Assembly (NCBI GenBank): GCA_003931895.1 | Contig: RRZV01000071.1 | Span: 1 to 64,000 of the forward strand | Reading direction: 5' to 3' | Source: Mesohalobacter salilacus | Lineage (GTDB): Bacteria > Bacteroidota > Bacteroidia > Flavobacteriales > Flavobacteriaceae | DNA: 64,000 nt | Shown here: one piece after another, positions 214-61,206 of the stretch | Numbering within the stretch: the stretch's first letter is position 1 | How the letters are laid out: every line of letters begins with the position of its first letter | Program-made: the position numbers and the translations under genes | The notes under the pieces: generated by a model | Database searches by the model: none | What the model saw: the letters and a program-made list of their open reading frames with translations, nothing else | What the model was told of the DNA's origin: nothing

Positions 214-244
214 TTTCCGGTAGTGTATATTTGCGCAAAAACGA

Positions 245-3126: not shown

Positions 3127-4920
3127 ATGACATATTTAAAATATACCATTATTGTATTTTCACTTTTACTTGTGCCTAAACTTTACGCACAAAGCATAAG
3201 TCTTGCTATGAATTATGTTGACCAAGGGGAATATGTAAAGGCCAAAAGCCTATATGAAAAACTATATCAGGAAAATCCTCGTAAGCAGGATTACCTATTA
3301 GGTTTAGTCAATGTTCATGTTCAACTTCAAGAATATAAAGAAGCTCAAAACCTCCTAAAAAACTACTTAGAACAATCAAATTCTTACCCTAATATTATGG
3401 TAGAATTAGGCTATGTTTTTCAATTACAAGGCGACAGTTTAAAAGCCAATTCGTGGTACGACAAGGCCATTAATATTGTTAAAACAAGATCTGTATTTGC
3501 CTACACCACAGGTCAAGCTTTTCAAAAACACAATCTCTTAGATTTAGCAATTAAAACTTATGAAATCGCCAAAGCCGAAGACTCTAGATTAACTTACAAT
3601 ATTCAATTGGCAAGACTATATGGCGAAAAAGGAGAACAAGAAAAAATGTTTGACAGCTATCTGGATTTGATTTTAGATAATGAAAAATACATTAACGTTA
3701 TTCAGCGAAATTTTAGTGAATACATTAGTAGTAATCCACAAAATGAAAGCAATCTTATCCTCAAAAGACTACTTTTTAAAAACCTTCAACAGTCTCCAAA
3801 TACGATATACAATCAAATACTGAGTTGGACTTTTATTCAAGAGGAATCTTTTGACAAGGCTTTTGCTCAAGAAAAAGCCATTTATAAAAGAACACAAGAC
3901 AAAAGTTTCAACCGCTTATTTAGCTTAGGAGAAGTCGCTAAAGATGCTGAGTATTTTGATGAAGCGCTAACGATTTTTAATTATATTTCTGAAGAAAGTT
4001 CAAATTTAAATACTAAGCTCGAGGCAGTAGAAAACATAATGAAAATTCAATTACTTCAAGATAAAGATTCATCTGCTGTAAATCAAAAATTTCAATCTTA
4101 TTTTAAAACCTTTGGGTACAACAAACAAACATTCGATCTCCAATTAATTTACGCAAAGTTTAAAGCCTTTGTTACTGATGATAAGAAGGGAGCCTTAAAC
4201 CTTTTAGAGCAGACTTTTACTTATGAACTCAGCCGTTTTCAAGAGGCTAATGCTCAAATGCTTATGGCAGATATATTGGTGGCTCAAGAGCAGTTTAATA
4301 AGGCCTTAATCAAATACAGTTTAGTGAGTAAACAAGTGAAAAATACACCTCTAGCTCAAGAAGCTAAGTTTAAAACAGCTATGACGAGCTATTATAAAGG
4401 AGATTTTGATTGGTCACTTTCTCAGCTGAAAGTGCTTAAAAAAGCGACTACACAGACCATAGCAAATGATGCAATGGAAATGTCAAGATTTATTAAAGAT
4501 GGACAGTCAGATATTGACTCGACTCAACAAGCTTTAAGAACAATTGCTAAAGTTGATTTTTTAATTTATCAAAATAAACTTAATCAAGCATTGCAACAAC
4601 TAAATAACGCAATACAAAATACCGATAATTTTCATCTATTAGATCAGGCTTATTTTAAAAAAGCAAAAATACTTGAAGAGCAACAACAATTTCAACTGGC
4701 TGTAAATCAATATGAAATTTTGGTTAATCAACAGCCTGAAAGCTTTTTGGTTGACAACGCCTTGTTTGCTATGTCTAATATACAATACTATAAACTCAAT
4801 TTGCCTGAAGATGCAAAGAAAAATCTTGAAACCTTAATTTTTAATTATCAAGATAGTATCTACTTTACAGAAGCGCGCAAGCTGTATCGTAAAATTAGAG
4901 GGAATCAAAATTTGCAATAA
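3127..4920 (+). CDS. Secreted/periplasmic tetratricopeptide-repeat protein
   Basis: From the ATG at 3127 this is a 597-residue protein with a signal peptide (MTYLKYTIIVFSLLLVPKLYA, cleavage after YAQ). An in-frame ATG at 3109 would add MFICED before the charged start of the signal peptide and is less likely. The rest is all-helical TPR repeats: ALAMNYVDQGEYVKAKSLYEKLY at the N terminus, YPNIMVELGYVFQLQGDSLKANSWYDKA next, and further repeats to the C terminus (SFLVDNALFAMSNIQYYKL). It presumably scaffolds protein contacts in the periplasm. Its stop overlaps the start of the next gene (TAATG), so the two are translationally coupled. No enzymatic domain is visible. Confidence 0.85.
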   Translation: MTYLKYTIIVFSLLLVPKLYAQSISLAMNYVDQGEYVKAKSLYEKLYQENPRKQDYLLGLVNVHVQLQEYKEAQNLLKNYLEQSNSYPNIMVELGYVFQLQGDSLKANSWYDKAINIVKTRSVFAYTTGQAFQKHNLLDLAIKTYEIAKAEDSRLTYNIQLARLYGEKGEQEKMFDSYLDLILDNEKYINVIQRNFSEYISSNPQNESNLILKRLLFKNLQQSPNTIYNQILSWTFIQEESFDKAFAQEKAIYKRTQDKSFNRLFSLGEVAKDAEYFDEALTIFNYISEESSNLNTKLEAVENIMKIQLLQDKDSSAVNQKFQSYFKTFGYNKQTFDLQLIYAKFKAFVTDDKKGALNLLEQTFTYELSRFQEANAQMLMADILVAQEQFNKALIKYSLVSKQVKNTPLAQEAKFKTAMTSYYKGDFDWSLSQLKVLKKATTQTIANDAMEMSRFIKDGQSDIDSTQQALRTIAKVDFLIYQNKLNQALQQLNNAIQNTDNFHLLDQAYFKKAKILEEQQQFQLAVNQYEILVNQQPESFLVDNALFAMSNIQYYKLNLPEDAKKNLETLIFNYQDSIYFTEARKLYRKIRGNQNLQ

Positions 4921-5225
4921 TGTATATTTACAATACCACTTTTAATATAGAGATAAACATATTTAACCAGTGTTTAAAAGAAATCAAAACAGACTTAATC
5001 CCACAGTTATTAGATTCTGGTTTAGTTGAAAAAGCTATTTTAACAGAAGTTTTAGGTCAGGATGATTCTGTGGGAAAAACGTTTAGTTTACAGTTGTTTT
5101 ATTCTTCTAAGGCTCATTTGTCTCAATTTCAAAAATTTCATAACCACATCACTGGAGGTTGGGTAAAACGCTACAAAGGTAAAGTGGTTTTTTTTCAAAC
5201 ACCTATGCGGGTAGTTGATCAATAA
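4920..5225 (+). CDS. DUF4286 family protein
   Basis: A 101-residue cytoplasmic protein of unknown function that I recognise as the DUF4286 family, common in Bacteroidota. It starts with the conserved MYIYNTTFNIE strand and has a ferredoxin-like alpha/beta pattern ending FFQTPMRVV. Its ATG shares the A of the upstream TAA stop, so it is co-expressed with the TPR protein. No catalytic residues are evident. Confidence 0.85.
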   Translation: MYIYNTTFNIEINIFNQCLKEIKTDLIPQLLDSGLVEKAILTEVLGQDDSVGKTFSLQLFYSSKAHLSQFQKFHNHITGGWVKRYKGKVVFFQTPMRVVDQ

Positions 5226-5263
5226 AGCCGAAAATATATTTTGGAATACTAACTTAAGGTAAA

Positions 5264-7276
5264 ATGCTTAAAAACGAACTCTCAAAATCTTCAAGTCCAT
5301 ATCTGCTTCAGCACAAAAACAATCCTGTACATTGGCTGGAGTGGAGCGATGAAACGCTTCAACTGGCTAAAGATCAAAACAAGTGCTTACTCATCAGTGT
5401 GGGTTATTCGGCTTGCCATTGGTGTCATGTCATGGCGCATGAGTGTTTTGAAGATGATGAGGTGGCTGCTTTGATGAATAAGCATTTTATCAACATTAAA
5501 ATAGATAGAGAAGAGCGACCAGATATCGATCAAATCTATATGGATGCAGCTCAAATTCTCACTGGTCGAGGCGGGTGGCCACTCAATGCGTTTGCTTTAC
5601 CCGATGGCAGACCGTTTTATGCTGGCACCTATTTTCCTAGTTACAACTGGATAAAAGTCCTTCAAAATATTGCCCAAGCCTATAAAGAACAGCCTGAAAC
5701 CCTAATCAATACAGCGAGCAGATTAACCGATAGTATTAAAAGTGTTGAGATTTTTGAAACTGAAGACACTCCAAAAAAATTATCAGAAATAGAATTGACT
5801 AATTCATACAAATCATGGTATGCGCATATTGATTTTGAAAAAGGCGGCGTTGATAAAGCCTCAAAATTTCCGATGCCTGTGGTTTGGGAAAGTTTATTAG
5901 AATATTATGCGGTTTATAAAGACACCCAAGCCATAAAAGCCATTGACATTACGCTTTCTGAAATGCTAAAAGGTGGTATTTACGATTGGGTTGGCGGTGG
6001 TTTTTCGCGCTACAGCGTTGACGAAAATTGGTTTGCACCACATTTTGAAAAAATGCTTTACGACAATGCGCAACTTGTTAGTCTTTACGCTGATACTTTT
6101 AAAATCACTCAAAACTCTAATTATAAAAAATGTATTAAAGAAACCATTAATTTTTTAAATTCAGATTTAAAACATGGAAATTTCGGCTACTATTCTGCAC
6201 TTGATGCAGACTCTGAAGGTGAAGAAGGCTTGTTTTATACTTGGACATTTCAAGAATTGAAGCAGATTTTAAATGCAGAAGAATTTGAATTGAATTCAAT
6301 ATTTTTTGGATTAAAACCTCACGGGAATTGGGAAAATCAAAGAAATATCTTGGCTCAAAAGGTGTCACTAAAAACATTAGCAGATAAATTTCAAGTGAAT
6401 GTAGAGCAAATACAAAAGGACTTAAAAAAGATTAAAGCTAAACTCAACGCTGAAAGGAATAAGCGTGAAAAACCGGGTTTAGATAACAAGTTAATAACGG
6501 CGCATAATGCTATGATGGTAAAAGGTTTTGTAAAAGCATACCAGGCTTTATCAAACGAAACCTATAAGGATTGGGCTGTAGAATTAATGCAAAACCTGAT
6601 TGAGCATAGTATTAATGAAGACTATTCTGTGAACCGCTTAATGGACAAACCCAAACCACAAGGCTTTTTAGATGATTATGCTTTTCTGATAGAAGCTTTA
6701 ATTTATTCTTATGAAATTAGTTTTGAAGTCAAATATTTAGAATTGGCTGAAAATTTAACCCAATATAGCTTAAACAACTTTTATGATGAGCACCAACAGC
6801 TTTTCTATTATACAGAAAAGTCCACACAGCTTATTGCCAGAAAAATTGAATTTAGCGACAATGTCATTCCATCCTCAAATGCTGTCATGGCTGAAAACCT
6901 TTGGCGATTAGGACATTTAGTTTCTAATGAAAACTATATTGAAAAGGCGAAAAAAATGTTGCTAAAAGTCAAACCGCTCTATAAAAAATTCAGCCTTTAC
7001 TTTGCTCGCTGGCACAAACTTAATATAGCCATTTTAAAAGGACAAATTGAAGTCGCAGTTACAGGTCCAAAATCTACACAACATAGTAAAAAGCTTCAAA
7101 AATACTATTGGCCATATTGCAATTTTTGTGGAGGTTTAAATGAAAACTTATCCCAACTTCAGCATAAAGTCAATCCCAATCAAGACCAAATATTCATTTG
7201 TCAAAATAAAACCTGTTCAAATCCTTTAACAAATATTAAGGAAGGTATAGCGATGTTAAAAAAGCAGTATCAATAA
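5264..7276 (+). CDS. Thioredoxin domain-containing protein, YyaL / SPATA20 family
   Basis: A 670-residue protein of the DUF255 family with full length. The N-terminal thioredoxin fold carries the hallmark YSACHWCHVM (Cys51, Cys54), followed by NIKIDREERPDIDQIYM and the GGWPLNAFALPDG segment. The remainder is an (alpha/alpha)6-toroid like N-acyl-glucosamine epimerase or cellulase folds, including GGIYDWVGGGFSRYSVDENWFAPHFEKMLYDNAQL (residues ~237-271; conserved His-Phe-Glu-Lys). Family members are widespread but their reaction is not established; a redox role is inferred from CxxC. The C terminus carries a CNFCGG...C...C cluster (residues ~622-660), a possible extra metal site. It stands 38 bp after the DUF4286 gene on the same strand. 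Confidence 0.9.
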   Translation: MLKNELSKSSSPYLLQHKNNPVHWLEWSDETLQLAKDQNKCLLISVGYSACHWCHVMAHECFEDDEVAALMNKHFINIKIDREERPDIDQIYMDAAQILTGRGGWPLNAFALPDGRPFYAGTYFPSYNWIKVLQNIAQAYKEQPETLINTASRLTDSIKSVEIFETEDTPKKLSEIELTNSYKSWYAHIDFEKGGVDKASKFPMPVVWESLLEYYAVYKDTQAIKAIDITLSEMLKGGIYDWVGGGFSRYSVDENWFAPHFEKMLYDNAQLVSLYADTFKITQNSNYKKCIKETINFLNSDLKHGNFGYYSALDADSEGEEGLFYTWTFQELKQILNAEEFELNSIFFGLKPHGNWENQRNILAQKVSLKTLADKFQVNVEQIQKDLKKIKAKLNAERNKREKPGLDNKLITAHNAMMVKGFVKAYQALSNETYKDWAVELMQNLIEHSINEDYSVNRLMDKPKPQGFLDDYAFLIEALIYSYEISFEVKYLELAENLTQYSLNNFYDEHQQLFYYTEKSTQLIARKIEFSDNVIPSSNAVMAENLWRLGHLVSNENYIEKAKKMLLKVKPLYKKFSLYFARWHKLNIAILKGQIEVAVTGPKSTQHSKKLQKYYWPYCNFCGGLNENLSQLQHKVNPNQDQIFICQNKTCSNPLTNIKEGIAMLKKQYQ

Positions 7277-7404
7277 TTTTTTTTCAAAAATCAAGCACTC
7301 TCCTAAGCCCTTTAAAATACAACGAAAATAATTTACGAAAAATAGTAAATCACTAACAATCAATATTTTAAATAACTGCTTCACAATCAGTTGGATTAGC
7401 TAAA

Positions 7405-7425
7405 TGTTGAAAACTTGTTGAAAAC
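7405..7425. promoter_or_regulatory. Direct repeat TGTTGAAAAC x2, 11-bp phase, upstream of nrdB
   Basis: TGTTGAAAAC occurs at 7405-7414 and 7416-7425, one helical turn apart, in the 240-bp gap before nrdB. The complement TTTTCAACA differs from the DnaA box TTATCCACA at two positions. A same-face tandem upstream of the ribonucleotide reductase operon suggests a regulator binding site. The rest of the 7277-7516 gap holds no gene or terminator that I can see. Confidence 0.45.
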
Positions 7426-7516
7426 CTTAGCAGCACATCGAATATAAAACTGTATTTATTTTGGATATTTGTTGGTGCTGAAACAATCAAAATTTAACAT
7501 TTAAAATTCACTAATC

Positions 7517-8497
7517 ATGGCGCAAGTAGAACCTATTTTGCAAGAAAACAAAGACCGATTTGTAGTATTTCCTATCAAACACCACGATATTTGGGAATGG
7601 TATAAAAAATGTGAAGCAAGTTTTTGGACGGCAGAAGAAATCGATTTGCATCAAGATATTTCAGATTGGCAAAACAAACTCAACGCTGATGAGCAGTATT
7701 TTATTAAACATATTTTAGCTTTTTTTGCAGCATCTGACGGTATTGTCAATGAAAATTTAGCTGAAAATTTTGTTAATGAGGTGCAGTATACAGAAGCCAA
7801 ATTTTTCTACGGCTTTCAAATCATGATGGAAAACATCCACTCAGAAACCTATTCTTTGTTGATTGATACTTACGTTAAAGATGAAGCTGAAAAGGATAAA
7901 TTATTTAAAGCCATTGAAAATTTTCCTGCCATCAAGAAAAAAGCAGATTGGGCACTTAAATGGATTGAAAGCCCAAGTTTTGCAGAGCGTTTAATCGCCT
8001 TTGCAGCGGTAGAAGGAATTTTCTTTTCCGGAGCTTTTTGCTCTATTTTTTGGTTGAAAAAACGCGGATTAATGCCAGGCTTAACTTTCTCTAACGAATT
8101 GATCTCAAGAGATGAAGGTGTACATTGTGATTTTGCAGTGCATTTGCATAACAACCATTTAATCAATAAGGTACCAAAAGAACGCATCAAAGAAATTATT
8201 ATAGATGCTTTAGACATAGAGCGTGAATTTATAACGGAATCATTGCCGGCAAGCTTAATCGGTATGAATTCCAAATTGATGACTCAGTATTTAGAATTTG
8301 TTACCGACCGTCTTTTGGTAGAAATGGAGTGTGAAAAAGTGTATAATGTGTCTAATCCATTTGATTTTATGGATATGATAAACCTTCAAGGTAAAACCAA
8401 TTTCTTTGAAAAACGAGTTGGTGAATACCAAAAAGCTGGCGTGATGTCTAAAGACAAAGAAAAAGATAACAAAATTAGTTTTGACGAAGATTTTTAA
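7517..8497 (+). CDS. nrdB: Ribonucleotide reductase class Ia, small (radical) subunit
   Basis: Houses the di-iron centre and tyrosyl radical that drive ribonucleotide reduction by NrdA. At 326 residues it is the usual length. [23 protein letters not shown] (residues ~97-119) holds metal ligands Glu105 and His108 and the probable radical Tyr112; AASD near residue 74, FAAVEGIFF and [13 protein letters not shown] provide the other ligands. The [16 protein letters not shown] wording is closer to eukaryotic R2 than to E. coli NrdB, as is known for Bacteroidota. It is 85 bp upstream of nrdA on the same strand and probably co-transcribed with it. Confidence 0.97.
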
Positions 8498-13863: not shown

Positions 13864-15015
13864 TTAGTTTAAATCGTCAATATTTTGCCAATTGATAAGC
13901 TCGCCATCACTGGTTTTTATATGATTTACACCTGTATAAACAACAATGCTTTTTTTGAGTTTACTTTTAGCTAAAGATTTATAAAATTTTAAGTTATCAA
14001 AATAGCTTTGACTAAATGTTGATCCAGATTTTATTTCAAGTGCAGTGACATTATTTCCTTGGTCAATAATACAGTCAATTTCTTTTCCTTTATGGTCTCT
14101 CCAAAAATACAAAGAATGTTGTTTACCTTTGTTAGTGCTTTTTTTTATAAGTTCTGTAATCACAAAATTTTCAAATAGCCCACCTTTGAGATAATGTGTT
14201 TTTAATTGCTCAGCAGAGCCTATCTGTAATAAGCTGCACGCCAGACCTGTATCGTAAAAATACAGTTTGCTCTGTTTTGTCAGCCGTTTATTAAAATTGT
14301 TATGGTGAGGTTTCAGCCTGTAAATTACATAGCTCGTCTCTAATGCAGAAAGCCACTTTTTAGCTGTATTTGGGCTTATACCAGTATCGTTTGCTAATGA
14401 GCTCACATTAATAAGTTGCCCTATTCTGCCAGCACATAATTTTAGAAAGGTATTAAAACTATTCAAATCCATCACGTTTATAAGCTGTCGTATATCTCTT
14501 TCTAAATAGGTCTGAATGTAATAAGGATAAAAATCTACTGCAGGTATGTTTTTATCATAAATTCTTGGATAAAACCCTGTATAAATCAATTCCCATAAAG
14601 ATTTATGAGTATAGTTTTTTATCTCTTGATAACTGAATGGAAGTAAGTTGAGTATAGCTGTTCGTCCTGCTAAAGATTGAGATACACTTTGCATAAGCAA
14701 GAAATTCTGTGAACCTGAAAGTATAAATTTACTATTGGGGTGTTCGTCAGAAATGACTTGCAAATAAGAAAAAAACTCAGGAACATTTTGAATTTCATCA
14801 AAAATAGCACCTTTTAAGTAGTTTTCTATAAATCCTTTTGGGTCATTTTCGGCAAAAGTTCTTATATCAGGTTGCTCTAAATTGACATAATCAAGGTGTT
14901 CTGTAATGCTTTTAATAAGTGTGGTTTTGCCTGACTGTCTTGGTCCAGTTACAGTTAAAATAGGATATTTTTCTAATAAATTTTTAGCTTTATGTGTTAG
15001 TATTCTTTGAAACAT
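13864..15015 (-). CDS. AAA_14 / DUF4143 ATPase, copy 1
   Basis: From the ATG at 15015 this is a 383-residue protein. An upstream in-frame ATG at 15102 would make translation run through the 37-bp palindrome, so the shorter start is chosen. Walker A is GPRQSGKTT (residues 24-32); Walker B is IFDEIQNVP; a sensor-like FILSGSQNFLLM follows. The C-terminal DUF4143 part has a winged-helix stretch (SSLANDTGISPNTAKKWL), YFYDTGLACSLL, FENFVITELIKK, and a PD-(D/E)xK-like core (KGKEIDCIID ... VTALEIKSG). Proteins of this family are widespread and patchily distributed; their biological job is unknown to me. A second, divergent paralogue lies at 59565-60692. It converges on the CIA30 gene 7 bp away. Confidence 0.9.
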   Translation of the reverse strand: MFQRILTHKAKNLLEKYPILTVTGPRQSGKTTLIKSITEHLDYVNLEQPDIRTFAENDPKGFIENYLKGAIFDEIQNVPEFFSYLQVISDEHPNSKFILSGSQNFLLMQSVSQSLAGRTAILNLLPFSYQEIKNYTHKSLWELIYTGFYPRIYDKNIPAVDFYPYYIQTYLERDIRQLINVMDLNSFNTFLKLCAGRIGQLINVSSLANDTGISPNTAKKWLSALETSYVIYRLKPHHNNFNKRLTKQSKLYFYDTGLACSLLQIGSAEQLKTHYLKGGLFENFVITELIKKSTNKGKQHSLYFWRDHKGKEIDCIIDQGNNVTALEIKSGSTFSQSYFDNLKFYKSLAKSKLKKSIVVYTGVNHIKTSDGELINWQNIDDLN

Positions 15016-15036: not shown

Positions 15037-15073
15037 TAGTACAATTTTGCAATTTAATTGCAAAATTGTACTA
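15037..15073. repeat. Perfect 37-bp palindrome upstream of DUF4143 ATPase copy 1
   Basis: Two 18-bp arms (15037-15054 and 15056-15073) are exact reverse complements around a single central T. Each arm reads TAGTACAATTTTGCAATT. Each strand contains CAATTTTG, one base off the TAnnTTTG -7 box, so a promoter may be embedded symmetrically. It sits 21 bp from the ATPase start codon at 15015, the right place for an operator or for a boundary of a mobile unit. Confidence 0.9.
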
Positions 15074-57411: not shown

Positions 57412-58749
57412 ATGTTAGATTGGGAACAGCTATTATCGCTCAAACGTCTAGGCGATACCACAAAACGCTTACGCAAAGAACAGGACGATACGCGATTGGG
57501 TTTTGAAGTGGATTACGACCGTATAATATTTTCGTCGGCTTTCAGAAGTTTACAGGATAAGACTCAGGTCATTCCCTTATCAAAAACGGACTTCGTCCAC
57601 ACCCGATTAACTCATAGTTTAGAAGTCTCGGTAGTTGGTCGCTCATTAGGTCGTCAGGCTGGTAAAGCCATTATTCAAAAATATCCACATTTAGAAAAAA
57701 CCTTGGGTTATCAATTTAGTGATTTTGGAGCAATTGTCGCCGCTGCAGCTTTAGCACACGATATTGGCAATCCGCCTTTTGGACATTCGGGGGAAAAAGC
57801 CATCGGGGCATTTTTTGAGCGTGGCAAAGGACAGCGTTTTAAGCCTGAAATTTCAGACTGGGCGTATCAGGATTTGGTTAAGTTTGAAGGTAACGCTAAT
57901 GGTTTTAAACTATTAACCGAGACTAAACACGGTAGTTTTGGAGGCTTACGATTGTCTTATGCCACTTTAGGAGCATTTACCAAATATCCAAGAGCTTCAT
58001 TTCCTTTAGAAACTTCAAAACACGTTTCTCGAAAAAAATACGGTGTTTTTAAAGCAGAAAAACCTTTATTTGATGAAGTGGCTGATGAACTAGGGTTGCA
58101 ATATGTTAAAAACACATCCTATTTTAGACATCCTTTGGCGTATTTGGTAGAAGCAGCCGACGATATTTGTTATACTATTATCGATTTTGAAGATGGTATC
58201 AATCTCGGGTTAATTCCCGAAGAATATGCTTTAGAATATTTGTCTAAATTGATTAATACACGGATTGACAAAGACAAATATTATAAGTTATCTACGACTA
58301 AAAATCGGGTGAGTTATTTAAGGTCTTTAGCTATTGGGCGATTGATTGAGGATGCGGTTGAAGCTTTTATCCAAAACGAAGAGAAGATAAGATGTGGAGA
58401 ATTGGACAAGCCATTAATAGAACTTTCACCTTACAAAGCACAAATTGAAGATATTATTCAAATAAGTATAAAAAACATTTATCAAAGCCAAGAAGTACTT
58501 GAGAAAGAAACGGTAGGTTTTCGCGTTATTAGCGAGATTTTAGAACATTTTAGTCAAGCCATTGAAAATAGTAAAAACGATAAAGCGAACCATTTTGATA
58601 AAGTTATTATCAAAGCCTTTTTAAAAGATTTTGAATTTGAAAACTTAGACACTGAATCTTGGTTGATTGAACTCAGTAGTCGAATTGCTTCTTTGAGTGA
58701 TAGCAAAGCTTTAGAAATTTATAAAACACTTTCGGGACAAAACTTATGA
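57412..58749 (+). CDS. dgt: Deoxyguanosinetriphosphate triphosphohydrolase
   Basis: Hydrolyses dGTP (and probably other dNTPs) to the nucleoside and triphosphate, moderating dNTP pools. The 445-residue HD-domain protein has SAFRSLQDKTQVIPL, the metal His in TRLTHSLEVSVVG (His68), and the HD pair in LAHDIGNPPFGHSGE near residue 116; a later conserved EAADDICYTIIDFEDG supplies the last ligands. It overlaps the following pcrB-like gene by 4 bp (ATGA). Confidence 0.95.
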   Translation: MLDWEQLLSLKRLGDTTKRLRKEQDDTRLGFEVDYDRIIFSSAFRSLQDKTQVIPLSKTDFVHTRLTHSLEVSVVGRSLGRQAGKAIIQKYPHLEKTLGYQFSDFGAIVAAAALAHDIGNPPFGHSGEKAIGAFFERGKGQRFKPEISDWAYQDLVKFEGNANGFKLLTETKHGSFGGLRLSYATLGAFTKYPRASFPLETSKHVSRKKYGVFKAEKPLFDEVADELGLQYVKNTSYFRHPLAYLVEAADDICYTIIDFEDGINLGLIPEEYALEYLSKLINTRIDKDKYYKLSTTKNRVSYLRSLAIGRLIEDAVEAFIQNEEKIRCGELDKPLIELSPYKAQIEDIIQISIKNIYQSQEVLEKETVGFRVISEILEHFSQAIENSKNDKANHFDKVIIKAFLKDFEFENLDTESWLIELSSRIASLSDSKALEIYKTLSGQNL

Positions 58750-59450
58750 TTGCTCAATCTCATATACTTCAGCAAATTCAACAAAATGTAAACCTTCAAA
58801 AGAAAGTTTTTGCCGTTCTTATTGATCCTGATAAAGTAAAATCAGAGGAGGTAGCTTCAACATTAAATCGACTTCCAGAAGACACTGATTTTATTTTAGT
58901 TGGGGGTAGCTGTGTTGAAAATCTCAAAACGGATGTGGTGGTTAAAGCTATAAAAGCTTTAATTGATTTACCTGTAATTTTATTTCCTGGTAATGTTAAC
59001 CAAATCACATCAAAAGCTGACGCTATTTTATTTTTGAGCTTGATGTCAGGTGATAACCCAGAATATTTGATTCATCAACAAGTGAAATCGATTAAGTTTT
59101 TAAAGCAATCAACCCTTGAAATTATGCCTACTGGATATATTTTAATAGATGGTGGAAAAACTACAGCAGTGGAAAAAATAAGCAAAACACAGGCTATTCC
59201 TCAAACCGAAATCAATCAAATTGTAAATATTGCTCTAGCCGCACAATATTCAGGAAAACAACTTATTTACTTAGAAGCGGGTAGTGGCGCAAGATTTCCT
59301 GTTAAACCCGAAATTATAAAAGCGGTTAAACAGCAAATTGATTTACCACTTATCGTTGGTGGCGGCATTAAAACTGAAAAACAACGTCAAATGGTCTACG
59401 AAGCTGGTGCAGATATCGTGGTTATGGGAACAGTATTTGAAGAAATTTGA
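58746..59450 (+). CDS. Geranylgeranylglyceryl/heptaprenylglyceryl phosphate synthase (PcrB-like)
   Basis: Joins glycerol-1-phosphate to a polyprenyl diphosphate by an ether link. The 234-residue TIM barrel has VLIDPDKVKSEEV (the early D-P-D-K motif), FILVGGSCVENLKTD, LFPGNVNQIT, YLEAGSGARFPV and VGGGIKTEKQRQMVYEAGADIVVMGTVFE in pattern, the standard phosphate- and prenyl-binding layout. Archaea use this reaction for core lipids; a Bacteroidota form is known. Translationally coupled to dgt (ATGA). The product's fate here is unknown. Confidence 0.92.
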   Translation: MIAQSHILQQIQQNVNLQKKVFAVLIDPDKVKSEEVASTLNRLPEDTDFILVGGSCVENLKTDVVVKAIKALIDLPVILFPGNVNQITSKADAILFLSLMSGDNPEYLIHQQVKSIKFLKQSTLEIMPTGYILIDGGKTTAVEKISKTQAIPQTEINQIVNIALAAQYSGKQLIYLEAGSGARFPVKPEIIKAVKQQIDLPLIVGGGIKTEKQRQMVYEAGADIVVMGTVFEEI

Positions 59451-59456
59451 CTTTTA

Positions 59457-59516
59457 ATTCATAAATTATCATAATATTATGTGATTTAATTCATATAATA
59501 TTATGTTTTTATATGA
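59457..59516. repeat. 60-bp direct repeat, left copy
   Basis: Identical at 59 of 60 positions to 60699-60758 (C/T at position 14). It contains the palindrome CATAATATTATG and an inverted pair ATTCATATA/TATATGAAT that extends 4 bp past the right edge of the direct repeat. It starts 6 bp after the pcrB-like stop and ends just before the ATPase promoter. Confidence 0.9.
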
Positions 59517-59524
59517 ATTATTCT

Positions 59525-59532
59525 TACATTTG
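59525..59532 (+). promoter_or_regulatory. -7 box (TACATTTG) of DUF4143 ATPase copy 2
   Basis: Exact TAnnTTTG match 32 bp before the ATG and 8 bp after the left direct repeat, so that repeat overlies the -33 region and could be an operator. Confidence 0.55.
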
Positions 59533-59564
59533 GATATACACATCTTTAATTTTTAGATAAAAAA

Positions 59565-60692
59565 ATGATAAGCCGCACTATTACAGAAAACATCAAGACC
59601 AAATTAAACCGAGGTAAGGCAATCATTATAGTTGGCCCGAGACAAGTAGGTAAAACGACACTCATAAAAGGCTTGATTAAACATGATGACTATTTATTTT
59701 TTGATGGTGATGACCCTGCAACGAGAACCTTGTTAGATACGCCAAATACAGACCAAATTAGAATGCTGCTTGAAAATAAAAAGACTGTTTTTATCGATGA
59801 AGCTCAAAGAATAAATAATATAGGATTGACTGTAAAAATTATTATAGATCAACTTCAAGAGGTTCAAGTTTGGATAAGTGGTTCGTCTTCTTTTTTTATT
59901 TTTGACGAATTTAATGAGTCGCTTACAGGAAGAAAATGGGAATACAAACTTTTTCCAATAAGTTGGGAAGAATTCGAAAATCACGTCGGTTTTTTATCTG
60001 CAGAAAAGCAACTTGAAGACAGGCTTATTTATGGGATGTATCCTGACGTTATTAACAATCAAGGCGAAGAAATTCAAATCCTTAAGGATTTAGTAAATAG
60101 TTATTTATACAAAGATATTTTGGCATATGGAGGTATAAAAAAACCTGAAGTTTTAGATAAATTGGTTAAAGCCTTAGCGCTTCAGGTTGGAAATGAAGTT
60201 AACTTCAACGAAATCAGCCAACTAGTAGGCATAGACCGAAATACTGTTGAAAAATATATCTCTATTTTAGAAAAAGGATATGTAATCTTTAAATTGCCTA
60301 GTTTGAGTAGAAACCTGAGAAATGAAATAAAAAAAGGAAAGAAAATTTACTTTTATGATAATGGTATTAGAAATGCGATAATTGGCAGCATGAACAAGAT
60401 TCAATTAAGAACTGATGTTGGTGCTTTATGGGAAAACTTTCTTGTCGCTGAGAGAATTAAACAAATTGAATACAAAAAAAGATTGGTAAACTCTTATTTT
60501 TGGCGAACTACACAACAGCAGGAAATCGATTATATAGAGGAAATTAATCAAAAACTTCAAGCTTTCGAATTCAAATGGAATCCAAATAGAAAAGCTAAAA
60601 TTTCAAAAACTTTTATAAACAATTATAATACCGATATGTTTGTGGTAAACAGAAATAATTTTAGAGAATTTATAATTTTAGATAGTAAATAA
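59565..60692 (+). CDS. AAA_14 / DUF4143 ATPase, copy 2
   Basis: A 375-residue protein. Walker A is GPRQVGKTT (residues 24-32), Walker B is VFIDEAQRI near residue 70, and VWISGSSSFFIF is sensor-like. A winged-helix stretch (EISQLVGIDRNTVEKYISIL) leads into the DUF4143 part: KIYFYDNGIRNAIIG, LWENFLVAERIKQ, YFWRTTQQQEIDYIEE and LQAFEFKWN, with a PD-(D/E)xK-like nuclease core. Domain order is the same as in copy 1 (13864-15015) but the sequences are clearly different, so the two are not a recent duplication. Function unknown. Flanked by 60-bp direct repeats. Codon use is AT-rich and Lys/Asn/Ile-heavy like the other accessory genes. Confidence 0.9.
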   Translation: MISRTITENIKTKLNRGKAIIIVGPRQVGKTTLIKGLIKHDDYLFFDGDDPATRTLLDTPNTDQIRMLLENKKTVFIDEAQRINNIGLTVKIIIDQLQEVQVWISGSSSFFIFDEFNESLTGRKWEYKLFPISWEEFENHVGFLSAEKQLEDRLIYGMYPDVINNQGEEIQILKDLVNSYLYKDILAYGGIKKPEVLDKLVKALALQVGNEVNFNEISQLVGIDRNTVEKYISILEKGYVIFKLPSLSRNLRNEIKKGKKIYFYDNGIRNAIIGSMNKIQLRTDVGALWENFLVAERIKQIEYKKRLVNSYFWRTTQQQEIDYIEEINQKLQAFEFKWNPNRKAKISKTFINNYNTDMFVVNRNNFREFIILDSK

Positions 60693-60698
60693 ATTACT

Positions 60699-60758
60699 AT
60701 TCATAAATTATTATAATATTATGTGATTTAATTCATATAATATTATGTTTTTATATGA
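60699..60758. repeat. 60-bp direct repeat, right copy
   Basis: Second copy of 59457-59516, beginning 6 bp after the ATPase stop codon and ending 4 bp before the tadA stop. The 6-bp spacing after a stop codon repeats the spacing of the left copy after pcrB. Confidence 0.9.
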
Positions 60759-60762
60759 TTTA

Positions 60763-61206
60763 CTACTTTCTCTTTTCAAAAAAGAATTTCTTCATCAGAT
60801 GTGAGGCTTTCTGCTCCAAAATTCCTTTGACGACTTTAGTTTTAGGGTGAAGTTGAGTTTGCATAACATCAAAGCCACGCTTATAATCACTGGCTGCATA
60901 AACTAATTTTTTTAATTGACTCCAATACAAGGCACCGGCACACATTTGGCAGGGTTCAAGGGTTACATATAAAATACATTGATTTAAATATTTCCCGCCG
61001 AGGTAATTTGCAGCAGAAGTGATGGCTTGCATTTCCGCATGGGCAGTGACATCATTTAAAGTTTCGGTAAGATTATGTGCTCTGGCAATAATACTTTGGT
61101 TGATTACAACTACAGACCCCACAGGAATTTCTCCTTTTCCATAAGCAATTTGAGCTTGGTCTAAAGCTTTTTGCATAAAGTAAGTATCGTCAAATTCTGT
61201 TTTCAT
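60763..61206 (-). CDS. tadA: tRNA-specific adenosine deaminase / nucleoside deaminase
   Basis: Deaminates A34 of tRNA(Arg) to inosine, or free nucleosides in related enzymes. The 147-residue protein has the zinc motifs HAEMQAI (His56, Glu58) and EPCQMCAGAL (Cys86, Cys89). Length and the GKGEIPVGSVVV and AHNLTETLNDVTAHAE segments fit TadA. Convergent with the pcrB-like gene across the ATPase cassette; divergent from dxs with 38 bp between start codons. Confidence 0.93.
   Translation of the reverse strand: MKTEFDDTYFMQKALDQAQIAYGKGEIPVGSVVVINQSIIARAHNLTETLNDVTAHAEMQAITSAANYLGGKYLNQCILYVTLEPCQMCAGALYWSQLKKLVYAASDYKRGFDVMQTQLHPKTKVVKGILEQKASHLMKKFFFEKRK

What the first reader, a model, noticed from the sequence alone, without database searches (positions are those of the whole stretch)
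59457..60758. A DUF4143 ATPase gene bounded by near-identical 60-bp direct repeats
Seen: 59 of 60 bases are identical between 59457-59516 and 60699-60758, and the repeats bracket exactly one gene with its own promoter. Each repeat begins 6 bp after a stop codon (pcrB-like, then ATPase), and the right copy ends 4 bp before the tadA stop. Each repeat contains a 12-bp palindrome and inverted ATTCATATA arms. Known: AAA_14/DUF4143 proteins are abundant, patchy and without a settled function; they combine a P-loop ATPase with a PD-(D/E)xK-like core. Inference: a self-contained mobile or excisable unit with no transposase of its own. A 60-bp repeat is too long for an ordinary target-site duplication, so either the element carries its ends or it captured a 60-bp convergent-gene terminator. 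Recombination between the repeats would restore a compact pcrB-tadA junction with one copy.
Basis: partly seen in the sequence, partly recalled or inferred. Interest (0 to 1): 0.75.

Follow-up and report, generated by a model that had tools for sequence, protein, structure and literature searches.

The report
Orphan defence ATPase's self-operator, copied downstream
The two matching 60-base stretches around this gene look like copies of the gene's own on/off switch: nearly every relative of this very common, untested bacterial ATPase carries such a private switch in its promoter, and here, as in at least two unrelated cousins, a second copy sits just behind the gene.

Summary
A 64-bp direct repeat (62/64) brackets one AAA_14/DUF4143 gene and occurs nowhere else in its genome. 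It is neither a captured terminator nor a target duplication but the gene's operator. In 51 of 66 held-out homologous genes the same kind of palindrome (GGTGAATA..TATTCACC) sits within 200 nt upstream, over 70 times denser than elsewhere, usually repeated every 32-33 bp. The window repeat keeps the 32-bp register and stops just before the -7 box. In seven Flavobacterium-like genomes all 13 tandem-operator matches lie at the gene itself. Paralogs within one genome carry different palindromes, and operator similarity tracks the predicted winged-helix recognition helix better than any other part of the protein. The downstream copy is the unusual part; it recurs, with unrelated operator sequences, in two other DUF4143 lineages. 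The gene comes and goes: a close relative has pcrB-tadA with neither gene nor repeat, and a sister copy in xerD has a clear empty site. Best reading: a mobile, self-regulating ATPase-nuclease (PADLOC PDC-S01, function untested). Whether the second copy is a working operator or an insertion relic is open.

The parts
59457..59520 (+). upstream repeat copy = operator (iterons with 32-bp period) covering the promoter up to the -7 box
60699..60762 (+). downstream repeat copy = second operator copy, 6 bp after the ATPase stop codon, without a -7 box
59482..59518 (+). half-sites TGATT (59482) and TGAAT (59514), 32 bp apart; opposite half-sites ATTCA at 59457 and 59489, also 32 bp apart
59525..59532 (+). 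-7 box TACATTTG (TAnnTTTG) of the ATPase promoter, just outside the repeat
   Evidence: the consensus type is from general knowledge of Bacteroidota promoters
59565..60692 (+). AAA_14/DUF4143 ATPase (PADLOC PDC-S01): AAA domain, winged helix at about residues 194-265, PD-(D/E)xK-like core at about 285-361
58746..59450 (+). pcrB-type geranylgeranylglyceryl phosphate synthase gene, left neighbour
60763..61206 (-). tadA tRNA adenosine deaminase gene, convergent right neighbour
13864..15015 (-). second AAA_14/DUF4143 gene in the same window, from another subfamily
15039..15071 (.). its operator GTACAATTTTGCAATTTAATTGCAAAATTGTAC (arms perfect); the same 33-mer is the gene-less solo site in G006 with one difference at the centre

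Best explanation
The 64-bp repeat is the operator of the ATPase gene, an array of palindromic sites 32 bp apart (three helical turns, so on one face of the DNA). The protein most likely binds it through its own winged helix and represses its own promoter, keeping an ATPase/PD-(D/E)xK nuclease silent until it is triggered. The gene with its operator is a ~1.2-kb unit that enters and leaves intergenic sites. At this site a second operator copy lies behind the gene. I think it arose with the insertion or with an exchange between operators, and it may now serve as a second binding site (looping or a roadblock). Shown by sequence: operator conservation, placement, periodicity, gene-privacy, tracking with the recognition helix, and presence/absence. 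Inferred: binding, repression, the nuclease role, the trigger, and the origin and use of the second copy.
For: Upstream regions of the homologs carry GGTGAATA..TATTCACC palindromes. A matrix trained on 14 loci finds them in 51/66 held-out loci at 5.85/kb upstream against 0.08/kb in the gene and 0.075/kb elsewhere, with spacing 32 (29 cases) or 33 (13). The window repeat has half-sites exactly 32 bp apart. In seven genomes all 13 tandem-operator matches lie in the contig ranges of the fetched DUF4143 loci; the reversed-pattern control has 0. Across subfamilies promoter palindromes exceed control genes (Mann-Whitney p 8e-13), and the G048 paralogs each have their own. The recognition-helix window (221-235) has the top partial correlation with operator similarity, 0.46 against a median of 0.06 over 72 windows. 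AlphaFold pLDDT 89 with helix-helix-helix-strand-strand at 194-264 and invariant E290, D322, E335, K337. Upstream operators of G000 and G019 show 68 matches to 6 mismatches although fourfold sites in dxs are only 46% identical. Operator-gene-operator recurs in L168 (62 bp) and L191/L217 (41 bp). Empty sites.
Against: No binding or expression data. The downstream copy is rare: three independent lineages among 165 genes. Some homologs (e.g. L096, L097) show no clear operator, though their start codons may be mis-set. Pairwise correlations are not independent observations, and I ran no permutation test. The recognition helix could track operators partly through shared ancestry that the control for protein identity did not remove. 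In the position upstream of the -7 box an operator could activate rather than repress.
Confidence: 0.78

Rival explanations
1. The repeats are the recognition ends of a minimal mobile element: the ATPase-nuclease binds its operator at both ends and moves or excises the unit, so autoregulation and mobility use one site.
For: Operator-gene-operator in three lineages with unrelated operator sequences, where the repeat coincides with the operator and no more. Presence/absence at pcrB-tadA. A gene-less site in G006 keeping one perfect operator of another paralog. The protein has an ATPase, a winged helix and a PD-(D/E)xK-like core.
Against: Most relatives have no downstream operator (1/66 held-out). 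Insertions with an identified empty site show a 22-bp target duplication (xerD) or none, not operator ends. The gene-less pcrB-tadA junction in G006 has no operator copy. No strand-transfer domain was found.
Confidence: 0.2
2. The repeats are intrinsic terminators or insulators of neighbouring convergent genes, kept similar by chance or gene conversion.
For: Both copies lie 6 bp after a stop codon. As RNA they fold well (z -7.6 and -4.3). G006 has a different hairpin at the same junction.
Against: No terminator-like match at either copy. The sequence family is found upstream of the gene in relatives at unrelated sites, and the match ends at the -7 box.
Confidence: 0.08
3. The downstream copy is only a relic: a second, tandem DUF4143 gene with a like operator once followed and was deleted, or the insertion duplicated a resident operator.
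For: DUF4143 genes often lie in tandem (G048 C41 and C81, G003 C3). G019 keeps only a shortened downstream copy.
Against: No remnant of a second DUF4143 gene between the ATPase and tadA in G000, G019 or G024. The G000 downstream copy is 97% like the upstream one although neutral sites between these species are near saturation.
Confidence: 0.35

Closest known systems
PADLOC PDC-S01 (phage defence candidate, single gene)
   Same: The window protein matches model PDLC04789 over residues 1-370 of 375 (E 1.6e-162). It has the ATPase plus PD-(D/E)xK-like architecture reported for S01 (PMC12988326).
   Different: No operator or flanking repeat came up in the passages I read or in literature searches. 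Neighbours here are housekeeping genes, not a defence island.
Archaeal STAND-like ATPases of solved structure (2qen Pyrococcus abyssi, 2fna Sulfolobus SSO1545)
   Same: Best fold matches over residues 1-274: Z 16.0 (rmsd 3.2, 252 aligned) and 15.3 (rmsd 3.4, 252 aligned).
   Different: Sequence identity only 15-19%; the C-terminal part (from about 285) is barely covered by these matches.
Autoregulated defence or restriction genes with their own operators (restriction C proteins, BrxR/CapW-type WYL regulators; PMC9122601 found, abstract only)
   Same: A DNA-binding protein controlling a potentially costly locus through a promoter palindrome (general knowledge).
   Different: Here regulator, ATPase and putative nuclease are one polypeptide, and the operator differs from gene to gene.
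Orc1/Cdc6 and iteron-type initiators
   Same: AAA ATPase plus winged helix with repeated sites next to its own gene; 2qby is among the fold matches (Z 12.1, rmsd 8.9, 250 aligned). A likeness in layout only.
   Different: A nuclease-like domain is attached, and nothing indicates an origin of replication.

Membership tests
AAA_14/DUF4143 (Pfam PF13173 + PF13635) | both domains over the curated cut-off in one protein | tested here: met
   105.2 and 142.5 bits against cut-offs 27 and 28.1
AAA_14/DUF4143 (Pfam PF13173 + PF13635) | intact Walker motifs and PD-(D/E)xK-like residues | tested here: met
   invariant G29 K30 T31, D78, and E290, D322, E335, K337 in 44 homologs, placed on the matching secondary structure
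PDC-S01 phage defence candidate | match to the PADLOC model over its length | tested here: met
   PDLC04789, residues 1-370 on model 1-373 of 375, E 1.6e-162
PDC-S01 phage defence candidate | protection against phage | not testable with these tools
   needs an experiment; the cited review says validation is pending for most such candidates (PMC12988326)
self-operator (autoregulation) | conserved palindromic sites on the gene's own promoter, absent elsewhere | tested here: met
   held-out enrichment, all 13 matches at the DUF4143 loci in seven genomes, 32-bp register in the window
self-operator (autoregulation) | protein has a DNA-binding domain whose specificity residues track the operator | tested here: met
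   winged helix in the model; recognition-helix window ranks first of 72, without a permutation test
self-operator (autoregulation) | binding and repression in vitro or in vivo | not testable with these tools
   no assay possible
insertion sequence / transposon | transposase and target-site duplication at this site | tested here: not met
   one ORF only, with no transposase domain in Pfam; the empty G006 junction shows no duplicated target
insertion sequence / transposon | multiple identical copies in the genome | tested here: not met
   repeat found only here; the DUF4143 paralogs aligned in G000 are 29-62% identical to the window protein
intrinsic terminator | GC-rich stem followed by a T run | tested here: not met
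   0 terminator-like sites in 59400-60800; the hairpin is made almost only of A/T pairs

The most novel reading that the evidence does not exclude
AAA_14/DUF4143 (PDC-S01) genes are a very large class of solitary, mobile, self-regulated ATPase-nucleases in which each gene carries a private operator that co-evolves with its recognition helix, and operator copies on both sides make the unit excisable or exchangeable by the protein itself.
Probability: 0.17. Interest if true: 0.88.

Novelty: new variant of a known kind. Interest (0 to 1): 0.62.

Why it matters
[quoted passage not shown] A private operator on nearly every such gene gives a concrete molecular handle: what DNA the protein binds, and a reporter for what turns it on. 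Gene-specific operators that follow the recognition helix would also offer a large natural set for reading winged-helix specificity.

Tried and rejected
Target-site duplication for this repeat: rejected, because the gene-less G006 junction has no copy and the sequence recurs upstream of relatives at other sites. Common intergenic repeat: rejected, only two copies in the genome. Remnant of a second tandem gene: nothing found between gene and tadA in three species. A general rule that all DUF4143 genes are flanked by direct repeats: 10 flanking-repeat hits in 74 DUF4143 genes against 2/130 control genes, but several are dispersed intergenic repeats (L104-L106, L030, L071), tandem paralogous gene ends (L171) or terminators (L084, L089), so this is weak. 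Solved structures by sequence: no true relative. The C-terminal part was not searched alone for fold relatives, so absence of a nuclease match among the rows says nothing. Distances use the first start codon in the ORF, so some starts are uncertain (e.g. L191/L217).

Full report
What is there. The two copies are real and confined to this place in the genome. They bracket a 375-aa AAA_14/DUF4143 protein that matches the PADLOC single-gene defence candidate PDC-S01 with E 1.6e-162. The window lies in a 2.84-Mb genome (G000). Its nearest useful relatives are G006, G019 and G024: XerD is 94, 93 and 82% identical.

The repeat is not the target. In G006 the dGTPase-pcrB and tadA-dxs order is kept, but there is no ATPase gene and no copy of the repeat between pcrB and tadA; a different hairpin lies there. 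In G019 and G024 the ATPase follows pcrB as in the window and carries repeat-like sequence on both sides, shortened downstream in G019. In G024 about 400 further bases separate the downstream copy from tadA. The repeat therefore belongs to the gene.

It is an operator. Upstream of relatives in Bacteroidota (53-65% identical proteins, unrelated neighbours) lies an array of palindromes GGTGAATA..TATTCACC with an asymmetric spacer like AAAAAACATAACTATT. A matrix built from 14 Flavobacterium-like loci, tested on 66 others, hits 51/66 upstream regions, at 5.85/kb against 0.08/kb in the genes and 0.075/kb in the rest; successive sites are 32 or 33 bp apart in 42 of 43 cases. The window repeat reads TGATT and TGAAT 32 bp apart and ATTCA twice 32 bp apart, and it stops a few bases before a TAnnTTTG box that the downstream copy lacks. 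In seven genomes all 13 matches to a tandem pattern fall in the contig ranges of the fetched DUF4143 loci, with no match to the reversed control. So the sites appear private to the gene.

Every gene its own operator. Across Bacteroidota, DUF4143 genes have more and longer promoter palindromes than control genes. In G048, with 16 DUF4143 matches, the paralogs show different inverted repeats at the promoter or start codon, for instance arms of 29 bp in L223. The AlphaFold model (mean pLDDT 89) shows an AAA domain, a winged helix at residues 194-264 and a PD-(D/E)xK-like core with invariant E290, D322, E335 and K337. Over 100 proteins, similarity of the upstream regions, corrected for overall protein identity, correlates best with residues 221-235, the recognition helix: partial rho 0.46; the next windows are its neighbours, and the median of 72 windows is 0.06. 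Pairs are not independent, so I read this as localisation and not as a p-value. Genes with the helix INKxTVQ or INKxTIQ (L071, L094, L106, L219) share GGTCA-type sites, whereas most DKNTVS/N genes have GTGAA-type sites.

The second copy. A downstream operator is rare (1 of 66 held-out loci), but among 165 DUF4143 genes it occurs with unrelated operator sequences in three lineages: this site, L168 in G024 (62 bp), and L191/L217 in G048 (41 bp, the whole palindrome, about 14 bp after the stop). The upstream operators of G000 and G019 still show 68 matches to 6 mismatches while fourfold sites of dxs are only 46% identical, so the upstream operator is under selection. The G000 downstream copy is as close (60 of 62 to the G019 upstream copy), which means selection, conversion, or a recent event. 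I cannot tell which.

Mobility. The paralog on C44 is inserted in the 3' end of xerD. G006 shows the empty site, and the filled site carries a 22-bp duplication of the xerD end. The paralog on C71 has an empty site in G006 with no duplication beyond a few T residues. For the second DUF4143 gene of this window (13864-15015), G006 lacks the gene but keeps its operator palindrome with one change at the centre. L095 shows a 73-bp duplication of the 5' end of a neighbouring gene. Between G006 and G024 one DUF4143 region is 94% identical although other matching segments are nearer 71-78%. These genes move, but the ways of insertion differ and give no single mechanism.

How it most likely works. The protein binds its own array through the winged helix, cooperatively on one face, and holds its promoter down; an ATP-driven change on some signal would release it and engage the nuclease core. 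Binding, repression, signal and target are inferred. The fold matches to STAND-type ATPases (2qen, 2fna, Z about 15-16) agree with a sensor-switch role but do not show it.

Verdict. It is a self-operator. The generalisation to this widespread untested family is the interesting part.

Noticed in passing
window 13864-15015 (-) with operator 15039-15071: A second AAA_14/DUF4143 gene in the same window, from another subfamily, with a 33-bp operator whose arms are perfect. G006 lacks the gene at this site but keeps the operator.
   Followed up: partly
L169 3841-5110 (G000:C44) and L261 (G006): A DUF4143 gene inserted at the 3' end of xerD with a 22-bp duplication of the gene end; G006 has the empty site.
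   Followed up: yes
L095 4847-4919 and 6139-6211: A 73-bp duplication (72/73) of the start of what reads like an S4-domain pseudouridine synthase gene flanks a DUF4143 gene.
   Followed up: no
L180 about 4310-5720 (G006:C4) and L175 (G024:C87): A DUF4143 gene preceded by a small ORF (71-82 aa) is 94% identical between two species whose other matching segments are about 71-78% identical, suggesting recent transfer.
   Followed up: partly
L178 (G019:C1) about 6251-7586: The dGTPase gene next to pcrB matches in two reading frames (residues 1-304 and 304-445), so it is frameshifted or misassembled.
   Followed up: no
L174 3197-4325 (G006:C1): A decayed DUF4143 copy broken by stops or frameshifts.
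   Followed up: no
L082, L085, L086, L092, L098, L101, within about 5 kb of the DUF4143 gene: A gene of about 500 bp beside the DUF4143 gene in Flavobacterium-like genomes has AAACTTTCA..TGAAAGTTT hairpins on both sides, probably terminators.
   Followed up: no
L171 (G000:C64): A DUF4143 gene lies between two repeated stretches of about 200 bp that read like the ends of tandem CocE/X-Pro peptidase-type genes, so its flanking repeat is ordinary.
   Followed up: partly
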